Source: Actinomycetes bacterium
GTDB taxonomy: Bacteria > Actinomycetota > Acidimicrobiia > Acidimicrobiales > Acidimicrobiaceae
Assembly: GCA_021819025.1 (NCBI GenBank)
Contig: JAKASN010000009.1
Span: 1 to 12,842, forward strand
Reading direction: 5' to 3'
Length of the DNA stretch: 12,842 nt
A program made the translations under genes and the position numbers. The stretch's first letter is position 1, and every line of letters starts with the position of its first letter. The notes under the pieces were generated by a model. That model saw nothing but the letters and a program-made list of their open reading frames with translations. It was not told the origin of the DNA and made no database searches. Below are positions 3-10,978 of the stretch, in pieces.

Positions 3-668
3 ATGGTTGAGATACTGTTGCCCTCAGAGGTTGAAAAACAACTCTCTGATGCCATCGACAGCGCTGCATCGTGGAAAATCTTTGGTGCTGCAATGGTCGA
101 TACCCTCACCGAGTGGGCAGGCGATCCATCTCCGGTTTGGACTTACGCATGCCAGGGCCGCTATCTGAAACACGAAGTCGCCCAGTCCAACATGCAGACG
201 GGTCTTGTTGCACGAGGAGTGCCGGAAACAGCCGCCAATGCGCTATCAACGCTGTGGAGCAAAAAGATATATGGAAACGACTGGATAAAGCTCGACCGCC
301 GTTTGCGCCGAGACGCAGCCGCCCATTCTGGGAATACGGCTTATCTCGCCAACGCACAGGTGCTAAATGGAAATAAGCCGGTTGGCTACTGGAGCGCACC
401 GACCGAACTTTTCGCCCGCGCCGGATCGGCTGTGGTGTTTGATCGCTTGCGCGAGATCCACGGAATTGCAAATGGCTTCCTGGACGCCTCGAGCGCTCCA
501 GAGTGCTTCGACCCCGCAATGCATCGGGCCAACCCCAACCCAGCGGGATCGGAACGCGAGCGCTTCCGCTCGGCCTTCACCGAGACGCTGCTGAAGGCAA
601 TGCAGCAAGAGGACGCCGACGCTCCCTATCGCCAGAGAGCCGGGACCCAGCTGCGGATGCGCTTCTGA
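3..668 (+). CDS. C-terminal part of a polyvalent (LPD1-type) mobile-element protein
   Basis: The frame is open at the left window edge, so the ATG at 3 may be internal and the protein may be larger. The 221 visible residues are soluble, with no signal peptide or membrane segment. Around residues 125-150 the stretch GYWSAPTELFARA, followed by an acidic, Leu-rich tail, resembles the YWs.p.E.fARAfe core of the large polyvalent-protein-associated domain LPD1. Those domains sit in giant multidomain proteins of conjugative elements and phages, often beside primase, helicase or methyltransferase modules, and are thought to act during early establishment in a new host. The domain call rests on motif memory and not on a search. 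A perfect hairpin follows the stop by 5 nt, and an integrase tail lies on the opposite strand nearby. Both fit the end of an integrated element. Confidence 0.6.
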   Translation: MVEILLPSEVEKQLSDAIDSAASWKIFGAAMVDTLTEWAGDPSPVWTYACQGRYLKHEVAQSNMQTGLVARGVPETAANALSTLWSKKIYGNDWIKLDRRLRRDAAAHSGNTAYLANAQVLNGNKPVGYWSAPTELFARAGSAVVFDRLREIHGIANGFLDASSAPECFDPAMHRANPNPAGSERERFRSAFTETLLKAMQQEDADAPYRQRAGTQLRMRF

Positions 669-2323: not shown

Positions 2324-2635
2324 TCACCATCTAGCTGCCAAAATAGCTAATTTGTTTGAGGCCGCCTTGAAGATCTCATTAGCCCTGCGCAGCTCGGAGT
2401 TCTCCCGTTCCAGTTCTTTCACGCGGGTCCGCTCATCGGTGGTGATCCCGGACCTGATGCCGAGATCCACCTCAGATCTTCTCACCCACGTGCGAAGAGT
2501 TTCTGCGGACATGCCAAGCTCTTGTGCAACGGACATGGTTGTCGCCCACTGCGACGGGTACTCGTTCAGATGCTCTGCAACCATCCGAACCGCTCGCTCA
2601 CGAATCTCCGGTGAATACCTTCCAACTTTTGCCAT
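2324..2635 (-). pseudogene. IS3-family transposase OrfA, 3' end altered
   Basis: The 103-residue minus-strand ORF starts MAKVGRYSPEIRERAVRMV, a canonical IS3 OrfA opening. A helix-turn-helix follows (VAQELGMSAETLRTWVRRSE, about 37-56), then a leucine-zipper-like coil (RVKELERENSELRRANEIFK, about 71-90). Known OrfA proteins then run into a frameshift window feeding OrfB. Here the homology stops after FKAAS and the ORF ends in unrelated residues (KLAILAARW). No OrfB frame follows downstream (below 2324), so transposition by this copy is impossible without a helper. OrfA alone normally binds the terminal repeats and can regulate transposition. The family call is secure; the exact breakpoint (near 2350) is inferred. 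Confidence 0.8.
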
Positions 2636-3478: not shown

Positions 3479-3507
3479 TTGACAGGCACCGGTTAATATG
3501 TTCTAAT
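3479..3507 (+). promoter_or_regulatory. sigma-70-type promoter of the GntR regulator
   Basis: A perfect TTGACA -35 box (3479-3484) is followed after exactly 17 nt by TCTAAT (3502-3507), five of six matches to the -10 consensus. Transcription would start near 3513-3515, so the upstream TTG at 3507 cannot be the translation start. Confidence 0.75.
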
Positions 3508-3518
3508 TGTATGCAATT
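3505..3518. promoter_or_regulatory. probable operator of the GntR/FCD regulator
   Basis: AATTGTATGCAATT is an inverted repeat (AATTG-TATG-CAATT) that overlaps the -10 box and the expected transcription start. This is a classic place for autorepression. TTG-N4-CAA type palindromes are typical of FCD-subfamily GntR operators. The nine bases TGTATGCAA recur in front of the CoA-transferase gene. Confidence 0.6.
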
Positions 3519-3545
3519 CGTCGAATTGGAGAGGTCGGTTACAAG

Positions 3546-4247
3546 GTGGTCAAGCCAAGATCGTCTGCAGAAGCAACCTATATTGCACTCAGGCATCGCC
3601 TTTTGGAGGGGCACTATCCAGCAGGGTTTGCCCTTAGAGAGACGGAGCTTGCTGAGGAGTTCAGTACCTCTCGAACCCCCGTCCGTGAAGCCCTAAGGCT
3701 GCTGGCTGCAGAAAGGTTGGTCGAGTTCGAGCCCAACAAGGGAGCGAAAGTTGCTCCTTGGACAGGAGTAGACCTTCGCCGGATATTTGGACTCCGTCAG
3801 CGATTGGAGGGGTATGCCGCCGCGAAGGCTGCCGACCAGATAAGCGCTGGGGAGATTCAAAAACTCGAACGGCTCTGCGAGGAGATGGAGGAGGCGAATG
3901 GCCAGTCGCCGCAGAGATTCCAGGAGATTGCCGTGCTAAATAATACATTTCACGGGATCATTTTGGAGGTCGGAAGCGATAGCAGACTGGTGGCCATAGT
4001 GGCCGATCTCGTCGAAATATCGCTCGTGAGGCAGACGTTCGCTCACTACGATGCAGAGCAGCTTCACCGGTCTTTTGCTCACCACCGTGAACTGGTCGCA
4101 GCCTTTCGTTATAAGGATTCGGAGTGGGCCGAGTCGGTGATGAGTGCTCATATTTTTTCTGCCCGCGCTGTACTAACCGGAATCGCTGATTGCCTTGGCG
4201 AACAAGCTGGCGCTCCGAAGGTCTCCCCTGTGCGAGTTTTCGAATGA
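3546..4247 (+). CDS. GntR-family transcriptional regulator, FCD (FadR-like) subfamily
   Basis: A 233-residue DNA-binding regulator. The frame opens at TTG 3507, but that codon lies in the -10 box. GTG 3546, preceded by GGAGAGG (3528-3534), is the better start. The N-terminal winged helix (about 9-70) has the hallmark LRETELAEEFSTSRTPVREA with recognition helix TPVREALRLLAAERLV. The C-terminal FCD all-helical ligand domain has the metal-site pattern N132-x3-H136, H180 and H202. FCD regulators usually bind small carboxylates or fatty-acid derivatives through this metal, and the ligand relieves repression. Its own promoter carries an inverted repeat shared with the next gene's upstream region. 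It is therefore probably an autoregulated repressor of the organic-acid genes that follow on the same strand. Confidence 0.88.
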   Translation: MVKPRSSAEATYIALRHRLLEGHYPAGFALRETELAEEFSTSRTPVREALRLLAAERLVEFEPNKGAKVAPWTGVDLRRIFGLRQRLEGYAAAKAADQISAGEIQKLERLCEEMEEANGQSPQRFQEIAVLNNTFHGIILEVGSDSRLVAIVADLVEISLVRQTFAHYDAEQLHRSFAHHRELVAAFRYKDSEWAESVMSAHIFSARAVLTGIADCLGEQAGAPKVSPVRVFE

Positions 4248-4285
4248 TGAGCTCCGATGACTTGCTTGATCCGTTGACCGATGAT

Positions 4286-4299
4286 AATGTATGCAAAAT
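4286..4299. promoter_or_regulatory. second putative GntR operator, before the CoA-transferase gene
   Basis: AATGTATGCAAAAT shares TGTATGCAA with the operator at 3505-3518 and overlaps possible -10 boxes (GATAAT 4283-4288 or TAATGT 4285-4290). TTGCTT (4262-4267), 17 nt before TAATGT, could be the -35. The site lies 26 nt before the TTG start. This implies that the regulator controls the CoA-transferase gene. Confidence 0.5.
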
Positions 4300-4325
4300 C
4301 TGCTGTTTAGGAAGGGATTGAGGTT

Positions 4326-5540
4326 TTGCCGGTAGAGATGTCTGACATACGCGGCCCCCTAGCTGACGTGAGAGTCATTGAAATGGGCCAGCTTGTTGCT
4401 GGCCCATTTTGTGGCCAACTTCTTGGGGACTTCGGGGCGGATGTGATCAAGATCGAGGATCCCGGTAGAGGCGATCCGATGAGGCAGTGGGGCAGAGAGA
4501 AGCCAAATGGCACCTCTTTGTGGTGGCCCTTATTGGCTAGAGGAAAGCGCTCTGTAACGGTAAACCTTCGCAGTAAGAAGGGACAAGATCTCATTAGGGA
4601 TATTGTGCGACAGTCGGACGTCGTCCTGGAAAACTTCAGGCCAGGGACGCTGGAACGTTGGGGGATGTCGTACGAGGAACTTAGCGCTATCAATCCTCGG
4701 ATTGTTCTGACCAGGGTAACTGGCTACGGCCAGACTGGCCCGTACTCATCAAAGGCTGGTTATGGATCGATTGGCGAGGCAATGGGAGGGCTTCGCTATG
4801 TGTCGGGAGACCCATCATCGCCTCCCTCTCGAATGGGTATCTCGATAGGTGATTCCCTGGCTGGTATGTTTGCTGCTTTTGGCACCATGGTGGCTTTACA
4901 TGCTCGAGAGAAAACGGGAAGAGGTCAGGTGGTGGATAGTGCAATCTACGAGGCGGTGCTTGCCCTGATGGAGTCGCTGATTCCCGATTACACCCAGGCT
5001 GGATATATCCGGGAGCGTAGCGGCGCTATTATTCCGAACGTCGCACCTTCGAATGTCTATGGCACCAAAGATGGGCAGTTGATACTGATTGCAGCTAACC
5101 AGGACAGCGTATTTTCCCGCCTTGCCAAGGCCATGGGCCGTGAAGAACTTGCTATGGACGAGCGGTTCGCCAGTCACTCGTCGAGAGGTGCCCATCAGGA
5201 GGCTCTCGACGAGATAATCTCGCAATGGTGTTCAACGTTGTCGATTGGCGAACTCGAAAAGGTTCTCGATAATTTTGGGATTCCCCAAGGCAAAATGTAT
5301 CGAGTTCCAGAGATGCTTGAGGATCCCCACTTCAAGGCCAGGAGTGACATTATCAGCCTTCCGCACCGTATTTTCGGTGAAATAGCAATGCAGAACGTTG
5401 TCCCGCGTTTGTCGGATACCCCAGGCTACGTTCGCTGGGTAGGGCCGGAGCTGGGCGAACACAACGACGAGGTATTTTCTGGACTTTTAGGGATGGCAGC
5501 GCACCGACGTCAGGAGTTAGAAGGCGAGGGGGTGATTTAG
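4326..5540 (+). CDS. CoA-transferase family III (CaiB/BaiF type)
   Basis: A 404-residue cytosolic enzyme of normal family length, expected to move CoA between two carboxylic acids, for example from succinyl-CoA to the imported acid. TTG 4326 is preferred because AGGAAGGG (4309-4316) is well placed for it; ATG 4338 has no comparable site. The N-terminal signature is clear: ADVRVIEMGQLVAGPFCGQLLGDFGADVIKIE (14-45), then VVLENFRPGTLERWG and GYGQTGPY. The catalytic aspartate should be D176 in GISIGDSLAG, where family III enzymes form an aspartyl-CoA anhydride/thioester. The C-terminal part (about 225-380) follows the usual interlocking-ring fold pattern with a P-hinge region. Family members act on oxalate, carnitine, benzylsuccinate, itaconate, citramalate and others, so the substrate is open. 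The neighbouring importer and lyase suggest a di- or hydroxy-carboxylate. A 12-bp perfect hairpin lies in the first 30 codons, and the terminator stem overlaps the last codons. Confidence 0.9.
   Translation: MPVEMSDIRGPLADVRVIEMGQLVAGPFCGQLLGDFGADVIKIEDPGRGDPMRQWGREKPNGTSLWWPLLARGKRSVTVNLRSKKGQDLIRDIVRQSDVVLENFRPGTLERWGMSYEELSAINPRIVLTRVTGYGQTGPYSSKAGYGSIGEAMGGLRYVSGDPSSPPSRMGISIGDSLAGMFAAFGTMVALHAREKTGRGQVVDSAIYEAVLALMESLIPDYTQAGYIRERSGAIIPNVAPSNVYGTKDGQLILIAANQDSVFSRLAKAMGREELAMDERFASHSSRGAHQEALDEIISQWCSTLSIGELEKVLDNFGIPQGKMYRVPEMLEDPHFKARSDIISLPHRIFGEIAMQNVVPRLSDTPGYVRWVGPELGEHNDEVFSGLLGMAAHRRQELEGEGVI
4381..4409. other. perfect 12-bp hairpin inside the CoA-transferase gene
   Basis: AAATGGGCCAGC (4381-4392) pairs perfectly with GCTGGCCCATTT (4398-4409) around the loop TTGTT, and T4410 allows a further G-T pair with G4380. 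It lies about 55 nt inside the reading frame and encodes the conserved EMGQLVAGPF segment. It may be an early intragenic attenuator or an accident of codons for that motif. Confidence 0.5.
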
Positions 5541-5580
5541 AGTTGCGAAATTCTGGGATATCGCCCCGTTTTTTGTTTTT
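5529..5580 (+). terminator. rho-independent terminator after the CoA-transferase gene
   Basis: GGGGTGAT (5529-5536) pairs with ATCGCCCC (5560-5567) with one wobble. After G5568 the stem is followed by TTTTTTGTTTTT (5569-5580). The stem overlaps the last codons and stop of the CoA-transferase gene. The loop of about 23 nt is long, but the T-run is strong. It separates this gene from the transporter genes, which must have their own promoter or rely on read-through. Confidence 0.6.
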
Positions 5581-5649
5581 CCAGCAGTGGTCTGATCTCC
5601 ACAACTTAGGCGTTGACGGCCTAACTAAAGGTATGCGGAAGTCTCGATC

Positions 5650-5680
5650 CATTGCAGTTAGAGATCATTACATTTCAAAT
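5650..5680 (+). promoter_or_regulatory. weak promoter candidate for the ABC transporter genes
   Basis: TTGCAG (5652-5657) and TCAAAT (5675-5680) are spaced 17 nt apart, each four of six to consensus, about 60 nt upstream of the lipoprotein gene. A GTATGC core reminiscent of the regulator site lies further upstream at 5631-5636, but without the full inverted repeat. This is a suggestion only. Confidence 0.25.
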
Positions 5681-5737
5681 ATGGATCAACAGCTCTGTAT
5701 TCGATAGTTTGAACACAAAGGAAAGAGGAGGTATGTC

Positions 5738-6829
5738 GTGAAGGCAAGAAATGGGAGAATGGTAACCTATGGGATCGCTTTGTTGGCGGTTCCAGTTGTG
5801 CTGGCAGCATGCGGCAGCAGCTCGGCTGTGCCGAAGTCCAGCACGTCCTCGTCGTCTCCGGCCCCACCCCCGACGCTCACGGTGGCAATTGCTTCAAACA
5901 CGACATTGTATGGGTCAGCTTGGATAGCGCAGGCTAAGGGTCTCTTCACCAAGAATGATGTGAATGTTCATCTGTTAACCAACACCGAGACGGGCACTGC
6001 TGCGTTGGTTACATCGGGGCAAGCTGACATTGCCCTATTCACGACTGCTTTCCCTTTGGAGTTGGCGCACGAGGGACAGGATGCCGTAATTATTTACAAT
6101 ACGACAAACACTGTTGTACCGGCGGTAATTTCGCCTCCGTCGATTAAGTCACTTGCTCAATTGCAAAGTCTTTCTTCTTGCCGAATGAACACCCCTAGCG
6201 TGGGATCGGTGTTCTACGGCTCCGCCCTGGCCTTTAAAAGCTACTACCACATCAACTGTTCCATCGTACCTCTTAGTACGGTTACCGTACAGGTGCCTGG
6301 TGTAACATCTGGACAGTACCAGGCATCTCTTGTGATTGCTGACGCAGCTGAACCTGCCGTTCTTGCTGGTAAAGCGAATCTTATCGTCAACCCTCTTAAC
6401 CTGACTGTTGGTGAGCGCACCGCATTCGAACCATATGGAGCCTATCCATCGCTAGTCGCCTTTGGAATAAAGTCGACGCTCGACGCAAATCGTGTGGCAG
6501 TGACGCGTTTCGTGAAGGCTCTGTATGAGGCGGGTGCTGTTATTGGCAGCGATTCGGCCAGTCAGCTCGGCGCGTTGACGGTAACTCAACTGTCATCAGA
6601 GCTACCTGGGCTGACTCAGCAGTCGGCGACATATTCATGGTCCGCTTCGAAGCAGTCAATTCCTTTGGGAGCTACAAGAGGATATATAAGTGCTGCACTT
6701 TGGCAGAAGACTTTGCTTGGTGTAGCTAGTTGGGGCCTCAGCAACTTCACTCCATCAAGCGCGAGCAACTCCTATGCTGAGCGCGTGGACATGAGCTTTT
6801 ACAACGCAGCCGTAAAACCGGGGTCGTAA
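5738..6829 (+). CDS. ABC importer substrate-binding lipoprotein, NMT1/SsuA/TauA type
   Basis: A 363-residue exported lipoprotein that captures the substrate outside the membrane. GTG 5738 is set by GGAGG (5727-5731) at 6-nt spacing; an ATG at 5733 runs into a stop at once. The signal peptide has a basic n-region, a hydrophobic core (11-22) and the lipobox VLAAC with C25 as the lipidation site. A Ser/Pro-rich linker (26-45) follows, then the mature domain starting TLTVAIASNTTLYGSAWIAQAKGLF. The next stretch, NDVNVHLL..TETGTAALVTSGQADIAL, is the standard NMT1/SsuA pattern. Such proteins bind sulfonates, taurine, thiamine precursors, aromatic acids or other small organic acids. The ATPase gene starts 5 nt after the stop, so the three transporter genes form one unit. 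The substrate is not predictable, but the flanking CoA-transferase and lyase point to a carboxylate. Confidence 0.85.
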   Translation: MKARNGRMVTYGIALLAVPVVLAACGSSSAVPKSSTSSSSPAPPPTLTVAIASNTTLYGSAWIAQAKGLFTKNDVNVHLLTNTETGTAALVTSGQADIALFTTAFPLELAHEGQDAVIIYNTTNTVVPAVISPPSIKSLAQLQSLSSCRMNTPSVGSVFYGSALAFKSYYHINCSIVPLSTVTVQVPGVTSGQYQASLVIADAAEPAVLAGKANLIVNPLNLTVGERTAFEPYGAYPSLVAFGIKSTLDANRVAVTRFVKALYEAGAVIGSDSASQLGALTVTQLSSELPGLTQQSATYSWSASKQSIPLGATRGYISAALWQKTLLGVASWGLSNFTPSSASNSYAERVDMSFYNAAVKPGS

Positions 6830-6834
6830 CCAGA

Positions 6835-7692
6835 GTGGAGATCGACGACCCTGCCATTCGTATTGAGCCCGAGGTTTTGCTCTCCGAAGTGAGCTATCGC
6901 TATCCAAGTGCATGGGAAGCACTTCGGGGCGTGGACCTTATGGTTCCCCATGGGGCGACCGTTAGTGTCATCGGCCCAAGCGGCTGTGGTAAGTCGACCC
7001 TTTTGAGACTGGTAGCTGGGCTCAACGAACCTTCAAGTGGGTCGATATGGTGCAGGCCAGCACCGATGGGGAGACTTCCAGTTGCAATGGTGTTCCAGGA
7101 AGATGTCTTGCTCCCATGGATGACGGTTAGGAAAAATATTAATCTACATCGGCGGTTCCAGCGCGGGGTAGGGCTTTCCGGGTTGTTTAAGGGGACCAGG
7201 CGCTCCAAATCCATGCAGTCTGAAGAATTCAGTGATGACCAAGCAGATCGGTTGTTATCGCTTGTGGGGCTAAGTGATACAGCAGATCTGCATCCTCGCG
7301 AACTGTCCGGGGGTATGCGGCGGAGGGTTGGCGTTCTCCAGGCGCTGGCACCTTCCCCAGCTCTCCTTCTACTCGATGAGCCATTTTCAGCGGTGGATGA
7401 GCCGACTCGTATTGGGATACATGATGACGTGAGAGAGCTGCTGAGGACCTTGGATGTGACGAGCCTCCTGGTGACCCATGACGTGGCTGAGGCGATAGCT
7501 ATGGGCGACTTTGTAGCTATTCTTTCGCCACGGCCAGCACATATTGAGACAATCGTGCCCGTTCCGTTTTCGGGAAGGCGAAACATGCGTGAACTTCGGA
7601 ACATGCCTGAATTCCTTCAGCTTTATGGAAGTATTTGGGAACTGCTAGTAAAGGCAATGTCCGATGGCCAGGGAGATCGGGAACCGAGGTGA
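6835..7692 (+). CDS. ABC importer ATPase, SsuB/TauB/NitT type
   Basis: A 285-residue ATP-binding subunit that powers the importer from the cytosolic face. All motifs are present: Walker A GPSGCGKST (47-55), Q-loop glutamine in MVFQEDVLLPW (Q88), signature LSGGMRRRV (157-165), Walker B LLLLDEP (177-183) and switch histidine in LLVTHDV (H215). Between the Q-loop and signature (about 104-133) there is a basic, Ser-rich insert that seems longer than in typical SsuB-like proteins. GTG 6835 has only a weak ribosome site and sits 5 nt behind the lipoprotein stop, so translation is likely coupled. Its stop overlaps the proposed GTG start of the permease (GTGA at 7689-7692). Confidence 0.9.
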   Translation: MEIDDPAIRIEPEVLLSEVSYRYPSAWEALRGVDLMVPHGATVSVIGPSGCGKSTLLRLVAGLNEPSSGSIWCRPAPMGRLPVAMVFQEDVLLPWMTVRKNINLHRRFQRGVGLSGLFKGTRRSKSMQSEEFSDDQADRLLSLVGLSDTADLHPRELSGGMRRRVGVLQALAPSPALLLLDEPFSAVDEPTRIGIHDDVRELLRTLDVTSLLVTHDVAEAIAMGDFVAILSPRPAHIETIVPVPFSGRRNMRELRNMPEFLQLYGSIWELLVKAMSDGQGDREPR

Positions 7693-8603
7693 CTGGTATC
7701 GAACAAGGGATGTCGGACACTGGCATTTCGGCGAACAGCAGGGTTGGAAATCAAGAGTATACCGCGTTATTGTCGAGTGCCTCAGGTCGGCGACTGATTG
7801 GGTTTGCCGGTGCATCTCTACCAAAGCGGAAGCGACTCTTAATCCAGTGCGTTCTTGTAGGAATTCTCTTAGCGGGCTGGCAATTTCTCCCAATGATTAA
7901 CATTCTATCTCATCACATTCGTTTACTGAATAGCTTCTATATCAGCTCTCCAAGTGATGTGTACAGTTGGATCCTAAAGCTTATGTTCGGCGCAAAAGGT
8001 ACACCTGTAGTCTGGCCGTATCTTTATAATACGGTGATCGGAGCAGTCGTAGGAAGCGCGATCGGTGTTGCAGTCGGTGCCGCAGCAGGGCTTGTCCTCT
8101 CCGAGAGTCGCTCCGTGAGCCAAGTGATACAGCCCTTTGTGGTTGTTGCGAATTCTGTGCCGCGTATCGCATTGATTCCCATTGTGGTGCTTATAGTTGG
8201 TCCGACGATTGAGTCCTCAATTGTCAGCGTTATCTTGGTTGTGTTCTTCCTTGCTTTCTTCAACGCATTCGAAGGTGGCAAGAATATCAGACAGCCGATG
8301 ATCGAGAATGCGGTACTACTGGGCGCCAGCCGATGGAATATCATGTGGGACCTTCGAGCGCCAAATGTGATTTTATGGACGTTTGCTGTTGTTCCGAATG
8401 CGATCAGTTTCGGGATCGTGGTAGCGGTTACTAATGAGCTGCTTACAGGTCTTAATGGCATGGGTGCTCTCCTCCTCACTGCGACGACAAACTTAGAAGC
8501 AGGGTTAACGTTCGCTGTAATTGTGGTCTTGTCCGTCGTGGGGGTGAGTCTTTACGCTGTTGCTGAGGTTGGGCGAAGGAAGGTGGTTCGCTGGTTGGCT
8601 TAG
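7689..8603 (+). CDS. ABC importer permease, SsuC/TauC type
   Basis: A 304-residue integral membrane subunit. The frame extends back to 7635, but GTG 7689 gives a 4-nt overlap (GTGA) with the ATPase stop and has purine-rich sequence upstream, which is the normal arrangement for coupled subunits. ATG 7710 is a weaker alternative. After a hydrophilic N-terminus (1-50), about six membrane segments can be seen near 51-69, 113-137, 148-171, 177-195, 228-250 and 274-293. The EAA loop that docks on the ATPase is ENAVLLGASRWNIMWDLRAP (206-225), with the conserved Gly 9 residues before the Ile. This matches the BPD_transp_1 family. The membrane partner completes a full lipoprotein-ATPase-permease importer, presumably working as a homodimer. 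Confidence 0.88.
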   Translation: MTGIEQGMSDTGISANSRVGNQEYTALLSSASGRRLIGFAGASLPKRKRLLIQCVLVGILLAGWQFLPMINILSHHIRLLNSFYISSPSDVYSWILKLMFGAKGTPVVWPYLYNTVIGAVVGSAIGVAVGAAAGLVLSESRSVSQVIQPFVVVANSVPRIALIPIVVLIVGPTIESSIVSVILVVFFLAFFNAFEGGKNIRQPMIENAVLLGASRWNIMWDLRAPNVILWTFAVVPNAISFGIVVAVTNELLTGLNGMGALLLTATTNLEAGLTFAVIVVLSVVGVSLYAVAEVGRRKVVRWLA

Positions 8604-8649
8604 AGTTTAGAGGAGCATCGGGAAGCGGAGATCTGAGCGTTTGAGTCTA

Positions 8650-8691
8650 TTGAAACATTGGACATTCGCGTAATAGCGCAATTGTACATTT
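8650..8691 (+). promoter_or_regulatory. possible promoter/operator region before the lyase gene
   Basis: The 103-nt gap before the lyase contains TTGAAA (8650-8655), TTGGAC (8658-8663), TAATAG (8671-8676) and AATTGTACATTT (8680-8691). The last resembles the left half of the regulator site AATTGTATGC. No pair has ideal spacing, so this is a weak call for an internal promoter with a degenerate operator. Confidence 0.25.
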
Positions 8692-8706
8692 AGAGCGGAG
8701 GGTGAA

Positions 8707-9570
8707 ATGATAAATGGTCCTAAAAAGTTAAGGGAACTTCTGGCGGGAAGTGGTCTGATCTGGGGTCCAGGGGTTTACGATGGCATTTCCGCCAGGATCG
8801 CTATGGAATTTGCTTTCCCGGTTCTCTACATGACGGGAGCGGGAACTTCCGCGTCACGATTAGGCATGGCTGACTTGGGACTTGCAACCGCGTCTGATAT
8901 GGTGGCTAACGCCAGATCAATTGCTCAACTCGTGGACGTTCCCTTGCTTGCCGATGCTGATAATGGCTATGGCGGTGTGTTGAATGTGGTCCATACTGTA
9001 CATCAATTCGAAATGTCGGGCGCTGCTGGAATCCACATTGAGGATCAGGTATCTCCAAAGAGGTGTGGACATCTCGATGGCAAGGTTGTTATACCACGGC
9101 AAGAATTCAAGGAGCGCATAGCCGCTGCGGTCAAGGAGCGGTGGAATCCGGAATTTGTTATTGTTGCCCGTACTGATGCTCGGGCCCCTCATGGGTTTGA
9201 GGAGGCGTATAGCCGGATCGAGGATGCCTTCGAAAATGGGGTGGATATGGGGTTCCTTGAAGCGCCGCAGTCGATGGCGGAAATTGAGATGATTGCAACG
9301 CGCTGTTCTGGGCCGATGCTCCTCAACATGGCGACCGGCGGGAAGACGCCTTCGCTTGACGTCAAGACTATAGAAGATCTGGGATTCAAGATGGCGGTTT
9401 GGCCGGGAGCGTGCATGATTCCCGCTGCCTTGGGAATTCGCCGGTCACTGGAAGTGCTCCGCTCACAGGGCACCGACAAGGAGGTGGTGCAGGCTGCGCC
9501 TCGTGAGTTTTTTAGGTGGATGGGCCTTGAGGAGCTAGAAACGCTGGAAGAGCGTTACAGGTTTCAATGA
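8707..9570 (+). CDS. isocitrate lyase / PEP mutase superfamily C-C lyase
   Basis: A 287-residue cytosolic TIM-barrel enzyme, of similar length to PrpB-type proteins. ATG 8707 has GGAGG (8697-8701) 5 nt upstream. Metal-binding and active-site motifs are intact: D83 and D85 in LLADADNGYGG, E112-D113 in GIHIEDQ, the flexible-loop signature SPKRCGHLDGK with C120, and RTDA (155-158). KRCGH is the form found in true lyases (2-methylisocitrate lyase, isocitrate lyase, 2,3-dimethylmalate lyase), where the cysteine acts as acid. PEP mutases and many hydrolases differ here. It should cleave a substituted malate or citrate-like acid to pyruvate or glyoxylate plus a second acid. There is no 2-methylcitrate synthase or dehydratase nearby, so a housekeeping PrpB role is not supported. 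It is the only gene of the set starting with ATG. Confidence 0.88.
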   Translation: MINGPKKLRELLAGSGLIWGPGVYDGISARIAMEFAFPVLYMTGAGTSASRLGMADLGLATASDMVANARSIAQLVDVPLLADADNGYGGVLNVVHTVHQFEMSGAAGIHIEDQVSPKRCGHLDGKVVIPRQEFKERIAAAVKERWNPEFVIVARTDARAPHGFEEAYSRIEDAFENGVDMGFLEAPQSMAEIEMIATRCSGPMLLNMATGGKTPSLDVKTIEDLGFKMAVWPGACMIPAALGIRRSLEVLRSQGTDKEVVQAAPREFFRWMGLEELETLEERYRFQ

Positions 9571-10622: not shown

Positions 10623-10700
10623 ATGGGAGTTGGCGTGCTTCGAGTGGCTACTAGGGATTTCTGTTCAATGTTCGGACGGGTAGGTCCTCGCACAAAATGA
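10623..10700 (+). CDS. 25-codon ORF coupled to the ACT-domain gene
   Basis: ATG 10623 is preceded by AAGGA (10611-10615) at good spacing, the best ribosome site in this stretch. The peptide MGVGVLRVATRDFCSMFGRV ends in PRTK, and its TGA overlaps the ATG of the ACT-domain gene as ATGA (10697-10700). The ACT gene has only a weak ribosome site of its own, so this small frame could serve as a translational leader or be the remaining tail of a lost gene. It has no run of branched-chain codons as an ilv attenuator peptide would. Confidence 0.35.
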   Translation: MGVGVLRVATRDFCSMFGRVGPRTK

Positions 10701-10978
10701 GCCGAAACGTTGAGGTCCCGGGTCGATCTACAATCTCGTGTCCGCTATGGCATGTCGAAGTCGAGTGCGTCCCCGCACCTATCCTGGTGGAGCGTGTACT
10801 CGTGGTGCTGCGGACGCGCCAGGTGGTCATTAGCGAGCTTCACTACATCGCTCCGAGAGCGGCTGACGCCGCTCTCCTGACGCTCACTGTTGAGGGGTCC
10901 CGGGAGGTTATCGAACAGGGAATGCTCTTCACGGAACGAGTTATCGGCGTGCTCGGTACCCGAATGTGGCCGCAGTAA
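10697..10978 (+). CDS. small ACT-domain protein, IlvM-like
   Basis: A 93-residue protein that is almost entirely one ACT domain. Residues 17-86 run WHVEVECVPAPILVERVLVV, LRTRQVVISELHY, ALLTLTVEGSREV and LFTERVIGVLG, the beta-alpha-beta-beta-alpha-beta pattern of ACT_5/IlvM. That is the short regulatory subunit of acetolactate synthase that binds branched-chain amino acids. No large subunit or other ilv gene is in the window, so the partner is either encoded elsewhere or lost. The start overlaps the stop of a 25-codon ORF (ATGA), and the only ribosome-site-like sequence is TAGGT about 11 nt upstream. A perfect 9-bp hairpin sits inside the coding region. The domain call is reasonably good; the role is unknown. 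Confidence 0.6.
   Translation: MSRNVEVPGRSTISCPLWHVEVECVPAPILVERVLVVLRTRQVVISELHYIAPRAADAALLTLTVEGSREVIEQGMLFTERVIGVLGTRMWPQ
10855..10876. other. perfect 9-bp hairpin inside the ACT-domain gene
   Basis: GAGAGCGGC (10855-10863) and GCCGCTCTC (10868-10876) pair perfectly around TGAC. It encodes part of the ...APRAADAALL segment. There is no T-run afterwards. Confidence 0.4.

What the first reader, a model, noticed from the sequence alone, without database searches (positions are those of the whole stretch)
3479..9570. A self-contained, GntR-controlled uptake-and-cleavage system for an unknown organic acid
Six consecutive plus-strand genes encode a GntR/FCD regulator, a family III CoA-transferase, a complete NMT1/SsuABC-type importer and a KRCGH-type C-C lyase. 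All have intact catalytic motifs while the flanking DNA on both sides is decayed, which suggests selection for this set. The combination does not match the known pathways I can name. There is no 2-methylcitrate synthase/dehydratase (propionate), no itaconyl-CoA hydratase or citramalyl-CoA lyase (itaconate), and no formyl/oxalyl-CoA decarboxylase (oxalate). A branched or hydroxylated dicarboxylate such as a substituted malate is my guess.
Basis: partly seen in the sequence, partly recalled or inferred. Interest (0 to 1): 0.75.

Follow-up and report, generated by a model that had tools for sequence, protein, structure and literature searches.

The report
Branched-diacid uptake and cleavage operon
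A relative of the acid-loving bacterium Acidithrix carries a small regulated gene set that most likely imports a branched dicarboxylic acid and splits it into two usable pieces; its parts recur in scattered catabolic gene clusters whose substrates are not known to us.

Summary
In detail: six open plus-strand genes (GntR/FCD regulator, family III CoA-transferase, NMT1-type lipoprotein, ATPase, permease, KRCGH lyase) lie at about 3507-9570 of a MAG placed in the genus of Acidithrix ferrooxidans. TTGTATACAA-type sites, also found before related GntR genes elsewhere, lie before GntR, CoA-transferase and lipoprotein, which argues for one regulon. 'Self-contained' and 'matches nothing' are not right. 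The CoA-transferase looks native; in plasmid records its clade sits with an HMG-CoA-lyase-like gene (15 of 17), LeuCD-type hydratase (8 of 17) or HyuAB (5 of 17). The lyase belongs to a separate clade, reached by score in 1 of 42 family genomes, so probably acquired; more distant relatives sit near LeuCD in 20 of 80 loci. Rubrobacter and Methylobacterium clusters hold the same families together, but the exact six-gene order was not seen elsewhere. The host's PrpD-linked (methylcitrate-type) lyase is another gene. Best reading: import of a 2-alkylmalate or a precursor, CoA-free C-C cleavage, and CoA transfer to a product or to the alkylmalate. Substrate and activities are inferred, not shown. 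New variant of a known kind; moderate interest.

The parts
3507..3516 (.). operator-like site TTGTATGCAA (1 mismatch to TTGTATACAA) before GntR
3546..4247 (+). GntR/FCD transcriptional regulator (frame open from TTG 3507; GTG 3546 has the better ribosome-binding site)
4287..4296 (.). operator-like site ATGTATGCAA (2 mismatches) between GntR and CaiB
4326..5540 (+). family III CoA-transferase (CaiB/BaiF), grouped by tree with the copies of A. ferrooxidans and Ferrimicrobium
5709..5718 (.). operator-like site TTGAACACAA (2 mismatches), 19 bases before the lipoprotein gene
5738..6829 (+). NMT1-type substrate-binding lipoprotein
6835..7692 (+). ABC transporter ATPase (Walker A, signature, Walker B intact)
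7710..8603 (+). ABC transporter permease (frame open from 7635)
8707..9570 (+). PEP mutase/isocitrate lyase superfamily C-C lyase, KRCGH, alkylmalate-lyase-like

Best explanation
A GntR/FCD-regulated catabolic operon for a branched dicarboxylate of the 2-alkylmalate kind. Proposed steps: (1) lipoprotein, ATPase and a permease homodimer import the acid (inferred from families); (2) the KRCGH lyase cleaves the free 2-alkylmalate without CoA into a 2-oxo acid such as pyruvate and a short carboxylate such as acetate or propionate (inferred from family, motif and the neighbours of relatives); (3) the CoA-transferase moves CoA onto the carboxylate product, or onto the alkylmalate itself so that an HMG-CoA-lyase-like enzyme encoded elsewhere in the genome can cleave it (inferred); (4) GntR controls three transcription starts through TTGTATACAA-type sites (sites shown, binding inferred). 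The set looks like a native GntR-CaiB pair joined to an acquired importer-lyase block (inferred).
For: Lyase: best solved relatives are 2,3-dimethylmalate lyase and oxaloacetate acetylhydrolase, then petal death protein (model pLDDT 87). LeuCD near the lyase in 20 of 80 genome loci and in 7 of the 9 plasmid loci with such a lyase that I read: yes in L173, L175-L179 and L196, no in L184 and L197. Same families together: Rubrobacter L025 (GntR, lyase, HMGL-like, SBP, ATPase, two permeases, CaiB 46%); Methylobacterium L176 and L196 (CaiB 64-65%, lyase 48-49%); Rhodococcus L173, where the only plasmid hit to the SBP (E limit 1e-8) lies under 4 kb from a lyase. CaiB clade, 17 of 17 plasmid records read: HMGL-like 15, GntR 11, LeuCD 8, HyuAB 5, KRCGH lyase 3, SsuA/NMT1-like importer 3. 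Sites.
Against: The exact order was not found elsewhere. CaiB near the lyase in 11 of 80 loci may be no more than its high copy number gives. In 17 of 17 order-level CaiB loci no KRCGH lyase is near. Methylobacterium's SBP and permeases do not align with the window's at E 1e-3 and its GntR genes lack the site, so that cluster is an analogue, not a copy. No LeuCD-type hydratase was found; PF00330 gives one AcnA-sized match in a 74%-complete MAG. Oxaloacetate acetylhydrolase is as near to the lyase as dimethylmalate lyase. No activity or ligand is known for any part.
Confidence: 0.45

Rival explanations
1. Chance neighbours: the native GntR-CaiB pair still serves another pathway (HMGL-like genes on other contigs, a HyuAB set now lost or unbinned), and an acquired importer plus lyase simply landed downstream.
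For: GntR beside CaiB-HyuA-HyuB-isochorismatase is the arrangement in four family genomes, two of the same genus; CaiB groups with family copies while the lyase clade and the SBP at full strength are found in 1 of 42 family genomes; IS3 fragment nearby.
Against: Operator-like site also before the SBP, all three sites in 0 of 2000 shuffles; the families meet also in Rubrobacter and Methylobacterium, and CaiB with lyase in Sphingomonas; base composition is even across the six genes.
Confidence: 0.25
2. Oxalate route: the lyase is an oxaloacetate acetylhydrolase giving oxalate and acetate, and the CoA-transferase is a formyl- or oxalyl-CoA transferase.
For: Oxaloacetate acetylhydrolase 3m0j is the best fold match, 43% identity; formyl-CoA transferase models score 242-250 bits.
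Against: Those models' cut-offs are 442-504 bits; none of the ten window frames first scanned is an oxalyl-CoA decarboxylase; the position that is Ser in the acetylhydrolase (marker recalled) is Pro here, as in petal death protein.
Confidence: 0.08
3. Propionate route: the lyase is a second 2-methylisocitrate lyase (PrpB).
For: TIGR02317 prpB is its best NCBIfam model, 235.7 bits of a cut-off of 354.4. The missed cut-off says little, because the PrpD-linked lyases of this MAG (280.9) and of A. ferrooxidans (273.9) miss it too.
Against: Nearer to dimethylmalate lyase (224.6 bits) than to E. coli PrpB (157.5); the MAG and A. ferrooxidans already have a lyase next to a PrpD that passes its cut-offs; no methylcitrate gene among the window frames scanned.
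Confidence: 0.07
4. The importer brings in another substrate (aromatic acid, sulfonate, imide) whose breakdown only later yields the lyase substrate.
For: The lipoprotein hits no NCBIfam model; Novosphingobium L183 and the two Aminobacter CaiB clusters sit among aromatic-degradation genes.
Against: No oxygenase or ring-opening family among the window frames scanned.
Confidence: 0.15

Closest known systems
2,3-dimethylmalate lyase (Aspergillus enzyme 3fa3/3fa4; nicotinate fermentation, recalled)
   Same: Fold, KRCGH acid, 38-41% identity; relatives of the window lyase lie beside LeuCD-type hydratases, as a dimethylmaleate hydratase-lyase pair would (pathway recalled).
   Different: No hydratase or isomerase in the window; substrate unknown.
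Petal death protein (1zlp), a 2-alkylmalate lyase (specificity recalled)
   Same: Same ARTDARAP stretch, where the acetylhydrolase has a Ser and 3fa3 a Thr.
   Different: 32-33% identity, plant enzyme, no operon.
CaiB-HMGL clusters with LeuCD and/or HyuAB-isochorismatase (Acidiphilium, Geobacillus, Novosphingobium, Peribacillus plasmids)
   Same: CoA-transferase of the same clade, 48-64% identity, GntR regulator in 11 of the 17 records read.
   Different: The window lacks HMGL, LeuCD, HyuAB and amidase and has an importer and a KRCGH lyase.
Methylobacterium plasmid clusters L176 and L196
   Same: CaiB, GntR, KRCGH lyase and an SsuA-like importer side by side.
   Different: Two permeases, LeuCD and HMGL present; importer proteins not closely related; no TTGTATACAA site before GntR.
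Itaconate pathway Ict-Ich-Ccl (PMC9875883, passages read)
   Same: CoA transfer onto a branched C5 diacid, then cleavage.
   Different: No hydratase and no CoA-ester lyase in the window; KRCGH lyases act on free acids (recalled).

Membership tests
PEP mutase/isocitrate lyase superfamily, C-C lyase branch | Pfam fold and KRCGH catalytic loop | tested here: met
2-methylisocitrate lyase (PrpB) | TIGR02317 cut-off | tested here: inconclusive
   235.7 of 354.4 bits, but PrpD-linked lyases of this MAG (280.9) and of A. ferrooxidans (273.9) miss it too
2-methylisocitrate lyase (PrpB) | methylcitrate genes beside it | tested here: not met
   none among the window frames scanned; PrpD (604.7 of 575 bits) lies with another lyase on C218
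2-alkylmalate / 2,3-dimethylmalate lyase | nearest solved relatives are of this type | tested here: met
   (oxaloacetate acetylhydrolase is equally near)
2-alkylmalate / 2,3-dimethylmalate lyase | cleavage of an alkylmalate | not testable with these tools
   needs an enzyme assay
Oxaloacetate acetylhydrolase | active-site Ser marker (recalled) | tested here: not met
   Pro at the position in the alignment
Family III CoA-transferase | PF02515 above cut-off, catalytic aspartate | tested here: met
   421 bits of 23.3; GDS at 175, role of the Asp recalled
Formyl-CoA:oxalate CoA-transferase | TIGR03253 cut-off | tested here: not met
   242.2 of 504.2 bits
Succinate-glutarate CoA-transferase | NF052585 cut-off | tested here: not met
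   288.7 of 750 bits, the best model
NMT1/SsuABC-type importer | NMT1 lipoprotein, ATPase and permease together | tested here: met
   lipoprotein only 29.3 of 20.5 bits
LeuCD-lyase module | LeuCD-type hydratase beside the lyase | tested here: not met
   absent from the window frames scanned; elsewhere in the MAG one AcnA-sized match to PF00330, MAG 74% complete

The most novel reading that the evidence does not exclude
The clusters that share these genes are pieces of one undescribed catabolic route for alkyl-substituted maleimides and maleates: HyuAB opens a cyclic imide, the isochorismatase-like amidase frees the alkylmaleate, LeuCD hydrates it to a 2-alkylmalate, and two interchangeable endings cleave that, either CaiB plus the HMG-CoA-lyase-like enzyme or the KRCGH lyase. 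The window is the short version that imports the diacid and uses the CoA-free ending. Tetrapyrrole-derived maleimides (such as 2-ethyl-3-methylmaleimide) would be a natural source, which would fit the recalled preference of petal death protein for 2-ethyl-3-methylmalate.
Probability: 0.15. Interest if true: 0.75.

Novelty: new variant of a known kind. Interest (0 to 1): 0.45.

Why it matters
It gives a concrete, testable substrate class to many 'isocitrate lyase/PEP mutase family', 'CoA transferase' and 'hydroxymethylglutaryl-CoA lyase' genes that annotation leaves without a role, and suggests two exchangeable ways to cut the same branched malates. Enzymes for alkylmaleates and alkylmalates were described from cell extracts decades ago (recalled); a gene set would let that old chemistry be tested.

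Tried and rejected
PrpB and oxalate readings: set aside on context, nearest relatives and marker residue; the PrpB cut-off itself turned out not to discriminate. Compositional test for acquisition: the six genes are even (GC 0.50-0.55, GC3 0.52-0.57), so it gives no support. SBP as a marker for more clusters: 3 hits including itself in the protein database, 1 of 396 phylum genomes, its own, weak hits in 18 other family genomes; one of these loci, L230, is another ABC set without the lyase. Lyase clade in other phyla: P0004 (Alicyclobacillus ferrooxydans) and P0036 (an Eremiobacteraeota MAG) are named, but I could not reach their neighbourhoods. Sigma-70 and terminator scans gave about what shuffles give. 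The family's other lyase (C543; 63-68% to copies in 8 of the 9 genomes of genus g442, the ninth not fetched) has a HbpS/GlcG-like neighbour in the MAG and is not this system. Literature: ten searches; those for gene combinations found no paper with all terms, and one search found 5 papers with two of three terms, 4 listed, none opened. The library lacks most subscription journals.
Full report
What is there. The window is contig C434 of a 2.74-Mb MAG in 543 contigs, 73.9% complete. A genome given as same genus (G214) carries a CoA-transferase that sits at zero branch length with the database protein of Acidithrix ferrooxidans (P0146), so the host is a close relative of that species (family Acidimicrobiaceae; the genus assignment is the tool's). 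The six genes are open, on one strand, with gaps of 78, 197, 5, 17 and 103 bases, and their motifs are intact.

One regulon. While reading the promoter I saw AATTGTATGCAATT at 3505 and TGTATGCAA at 4288 (neither pattern is in excess over shuffles in the window as a whole). Some relatives show TTGTATACAA-type sites near their GntR genes. With TTGTATACAA and at most one mismatch, 12 of 26 GntR genes in the loci examined have a site in the 350 bases before the first aligned residue or 30 into it, against 0.013 per 380 bases over all 751 kb. Leaving out the six loci that suggested the pattern (window, L153, L155, L156, L162, L178) it is 7 of 20. One of the positives, Azospirillum L178, has the site between its GntR (45% to the window's) and a lyase-LeuC-LeuD-SBP-ATPase-permease-permease-lyase row. 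The window has sites before GntR (one mismatch), CaiB (two) and the lipoprotein (two) and none before the lyase; 0 of 2000 dinucleotide shuffles have all three, the single chances being 0.039, 0.016 and 0.081. Two of the three were seen before the pattern was fixed, so only the third, before the lipoprotein, is independent, and it is weak alone. Fourteen of the 26 GntR genes, those of Methylobacterium included, have no such site.

The lyase. By sequence its best solved relatives are 3fa3 (2,3-dimethylmalate lyase, 224.6 bits), 3lye (oxaloacetate acetylhydrolase, 214.4), 1zlp (petal death protein, 169.4) and 4iqd (annotated as a phosphorylmutase, 166.8), ahead of E. coli PrpB 1mum (157.5). The predicted fold agrees: 3m0j 43%, 3fa3 38-41%, 1zlp 32-33%, PrpB 32% identity. 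It misses the NCBIfam PrpB cut-off, but so do the PrpD-linked lyases of this MAG (C218) and of A. ferrooxidans, so that test decides nothing; the presence of that PrpD-linked lyase, the nearest relatives and the neighbours do the work. A third lyase, on C543, has orthologue-like copies (63-68%) in genus g442 of the family. In a tree of 126 lyases the window's falls in a 25-row clade with full support (SH-aLRT 100, quick method), whose named members are Alicyclobacillus ferrooxydans and an Eremiobacteraeota MAG, the rest unnamed or only 'bacterium'. Judged by score with the clade's profile, only the window's copy reaches it (501 bits; next 345 and 340) among 42 family genomes and 396 phylum genomes; in 296 class genomes no other match passes 50% identity (one, G131, is at 50%). 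The lipoprotein is found at full strength in 1 of 42 family genomes; 18 others have weak hits of at most 56 bits. I take the importer-lyase block as acquired; base composition neither supports nor opposes this.

The CoA-transferase. It lies in a supported group (99/95) with the copies of A. ferrooxidans and Ferrimicrobium; two other family copies, L155 and the same-genus L163, fall just outside it. It is 64-70% identical to copies in four family genomes (L153, L154, L155, L163), where CaiB lies with GntR, HyuA, HyuB and an isochorismatase-like amidase, and an HMG-CoA-lyase-like gene in two. All 17 plasmid records with a close CaiB (E at most 1e-130) were read with 8-9 kb on each side (L176 through its lyase hit), two without annotation and so by tblastn alone: HMGL-like 15 of 17 (not L181, L197), GntR 11, LeuCD 8 (in L180 about 7 kb away), HyuAB 5, KRCGH lyase 3 (two Methylobacterium, one Sphingomonas), SsuA/NMT1-like importer 3 (two Methylobacterium, Geobacillus subterraneus). 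Several come in pairs from one genus and are not independent. In 17 order-level loci (L153-L169, from 17 of the 19 other matching genomes) no KRCGH lyase was found within the 12-20 kb held. The MAG has an HMGL-like gene on C65 (55% to L153's) and a fragment on C499 (66%), and HyuB homologues of only 25-29%.

Context of lyase relatives. Of 120 confirmed loci the tool kept the best 80, 36-49% identical to the window's and outside its clade. Within up to 10 kb on either side: LeuC and LeuD in 20 of 80, HyuA in 11, HyuB in 11, isochorismatase-like in 12, tripartite-transporter binding proteins in 16, CaiB in 11, GntR 5, HMGL-like 4. LeuC is usually one or two copies a genome, so 20 of 80 is far above chance by a rough estimate that I did not compute, and runs of Rokubacteria and Microvirga among the 20 are not independent; CaiB and the tripartite proteins are multi-copy, so those counts mean little. 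In Halalkalicoccus (L072) the order is HyuA, HyuB, isochorismatase-like, lyase. Of nine plasmid loci with such a lyase that I read (one search found 184 records, 25 listed), seven have LeuCD beside it (Variovorax, two Methylobacterium, Arthrobacter, Azospirillum, Paraburkholderia, Rhodococcus) and two do not (Halorussus, Sphingomonas). The Rhodococcus row is the closest for the importer: SBP 27%, ATPase 38%, permease 41%. It was found because the single plasmid hit to the lipoprotein fell under 4 kb from a lyase hit; it has no CaiB in the 30 kb read.

How it most likely works. LeuCD-type enzymes hydrate cis-diacids of the maleate kind, KRCGH lyases cut 2-hydroxydiacids to a 2-oxo acid and a carboxylate, and HMG-CoA-lyase-like enzymes make the corresponding cut on a CoA ester that a CoA-transferase would supply (all from general knowledge of the families). 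The clusters thus seem to combine a hydratase with one or both of two endings. The window keeps the CoA-free ending and an importer. The CoA-transferase then either activates the carboxylate product, or sends part of the alkylmalate to the HMGL-like enzyme elsewhere. Shown: genes, motifs, site distribution, gene neighbourhoods, trees. Inferred: every reaction, the substrate, the direction of transport, control by GntR.

Known and new. The label '2,3-dimethylmalate lyase' in PMC9804861 and PMC8471276 (passages read) stands for genes in methylcitrate contexts, so it alone proves nothing. PMC7609661 (passages read) cites the papers on petal death protein and dimethylmalate lyase; I have not seen those. 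No held paper contained all the gene-family terms that I combined; one search gave partial matches that I did not open.

Verdict. Real, probably functional, and partly assembled from native and acquired parts. Known enzyme kinds in an order not seen elsewhere in what I searched: a new variant of a known kind, interest 0.45.

Noticed in passing
window 2324-2635 (-): IS3-type OrfA transposase fragment (PF01527 above cut-off, NCBIfam IS3 below), near the operon.
   Followed up: no
window 3-668 (+): Frame with an LPD1 domain (large polyvalent protein-associated) at the contig end.
   Followed up: no
window 10697-10978 (+): 93-aa frame with a sub-threshold ACT_5 match (17.4 of 27 bits) in an otherwise gene-poor stretch.
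   Followed up: partly
L072 5368-10900: Haloarchaeal row HyuA, HyuB, isochorismatase-like, KRCGH lyase; lyase-HyuB-HyuA rows in L042, L044, L060 and L081 of proteobacteria and a Gemmatimonadota MAG.
   Followed up: partly
L182 4264-15862 and L200 4390-13505: Two Geobacillus plasmids share CaiB-HMGL and LeuCD; one has isochorismatase-HyuAB in front, the other an ABC importer, as if the front ends were exchangeable.
   Followed up: partly
L170 143-1664; L221 8651-10266: A second lyase of the family lies beside an HbpS/GlcG-like gene (PF03928, named haem-degrading; tested in L170, by eye in L221); role unknown.
   Followed up: partly
L196 13046-14638: A second lyase next to an isochorismatase-like gene and a branched-chain-type ABC importer, 3 kb from the main Methylobacterium cluster.
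   Followed up: no
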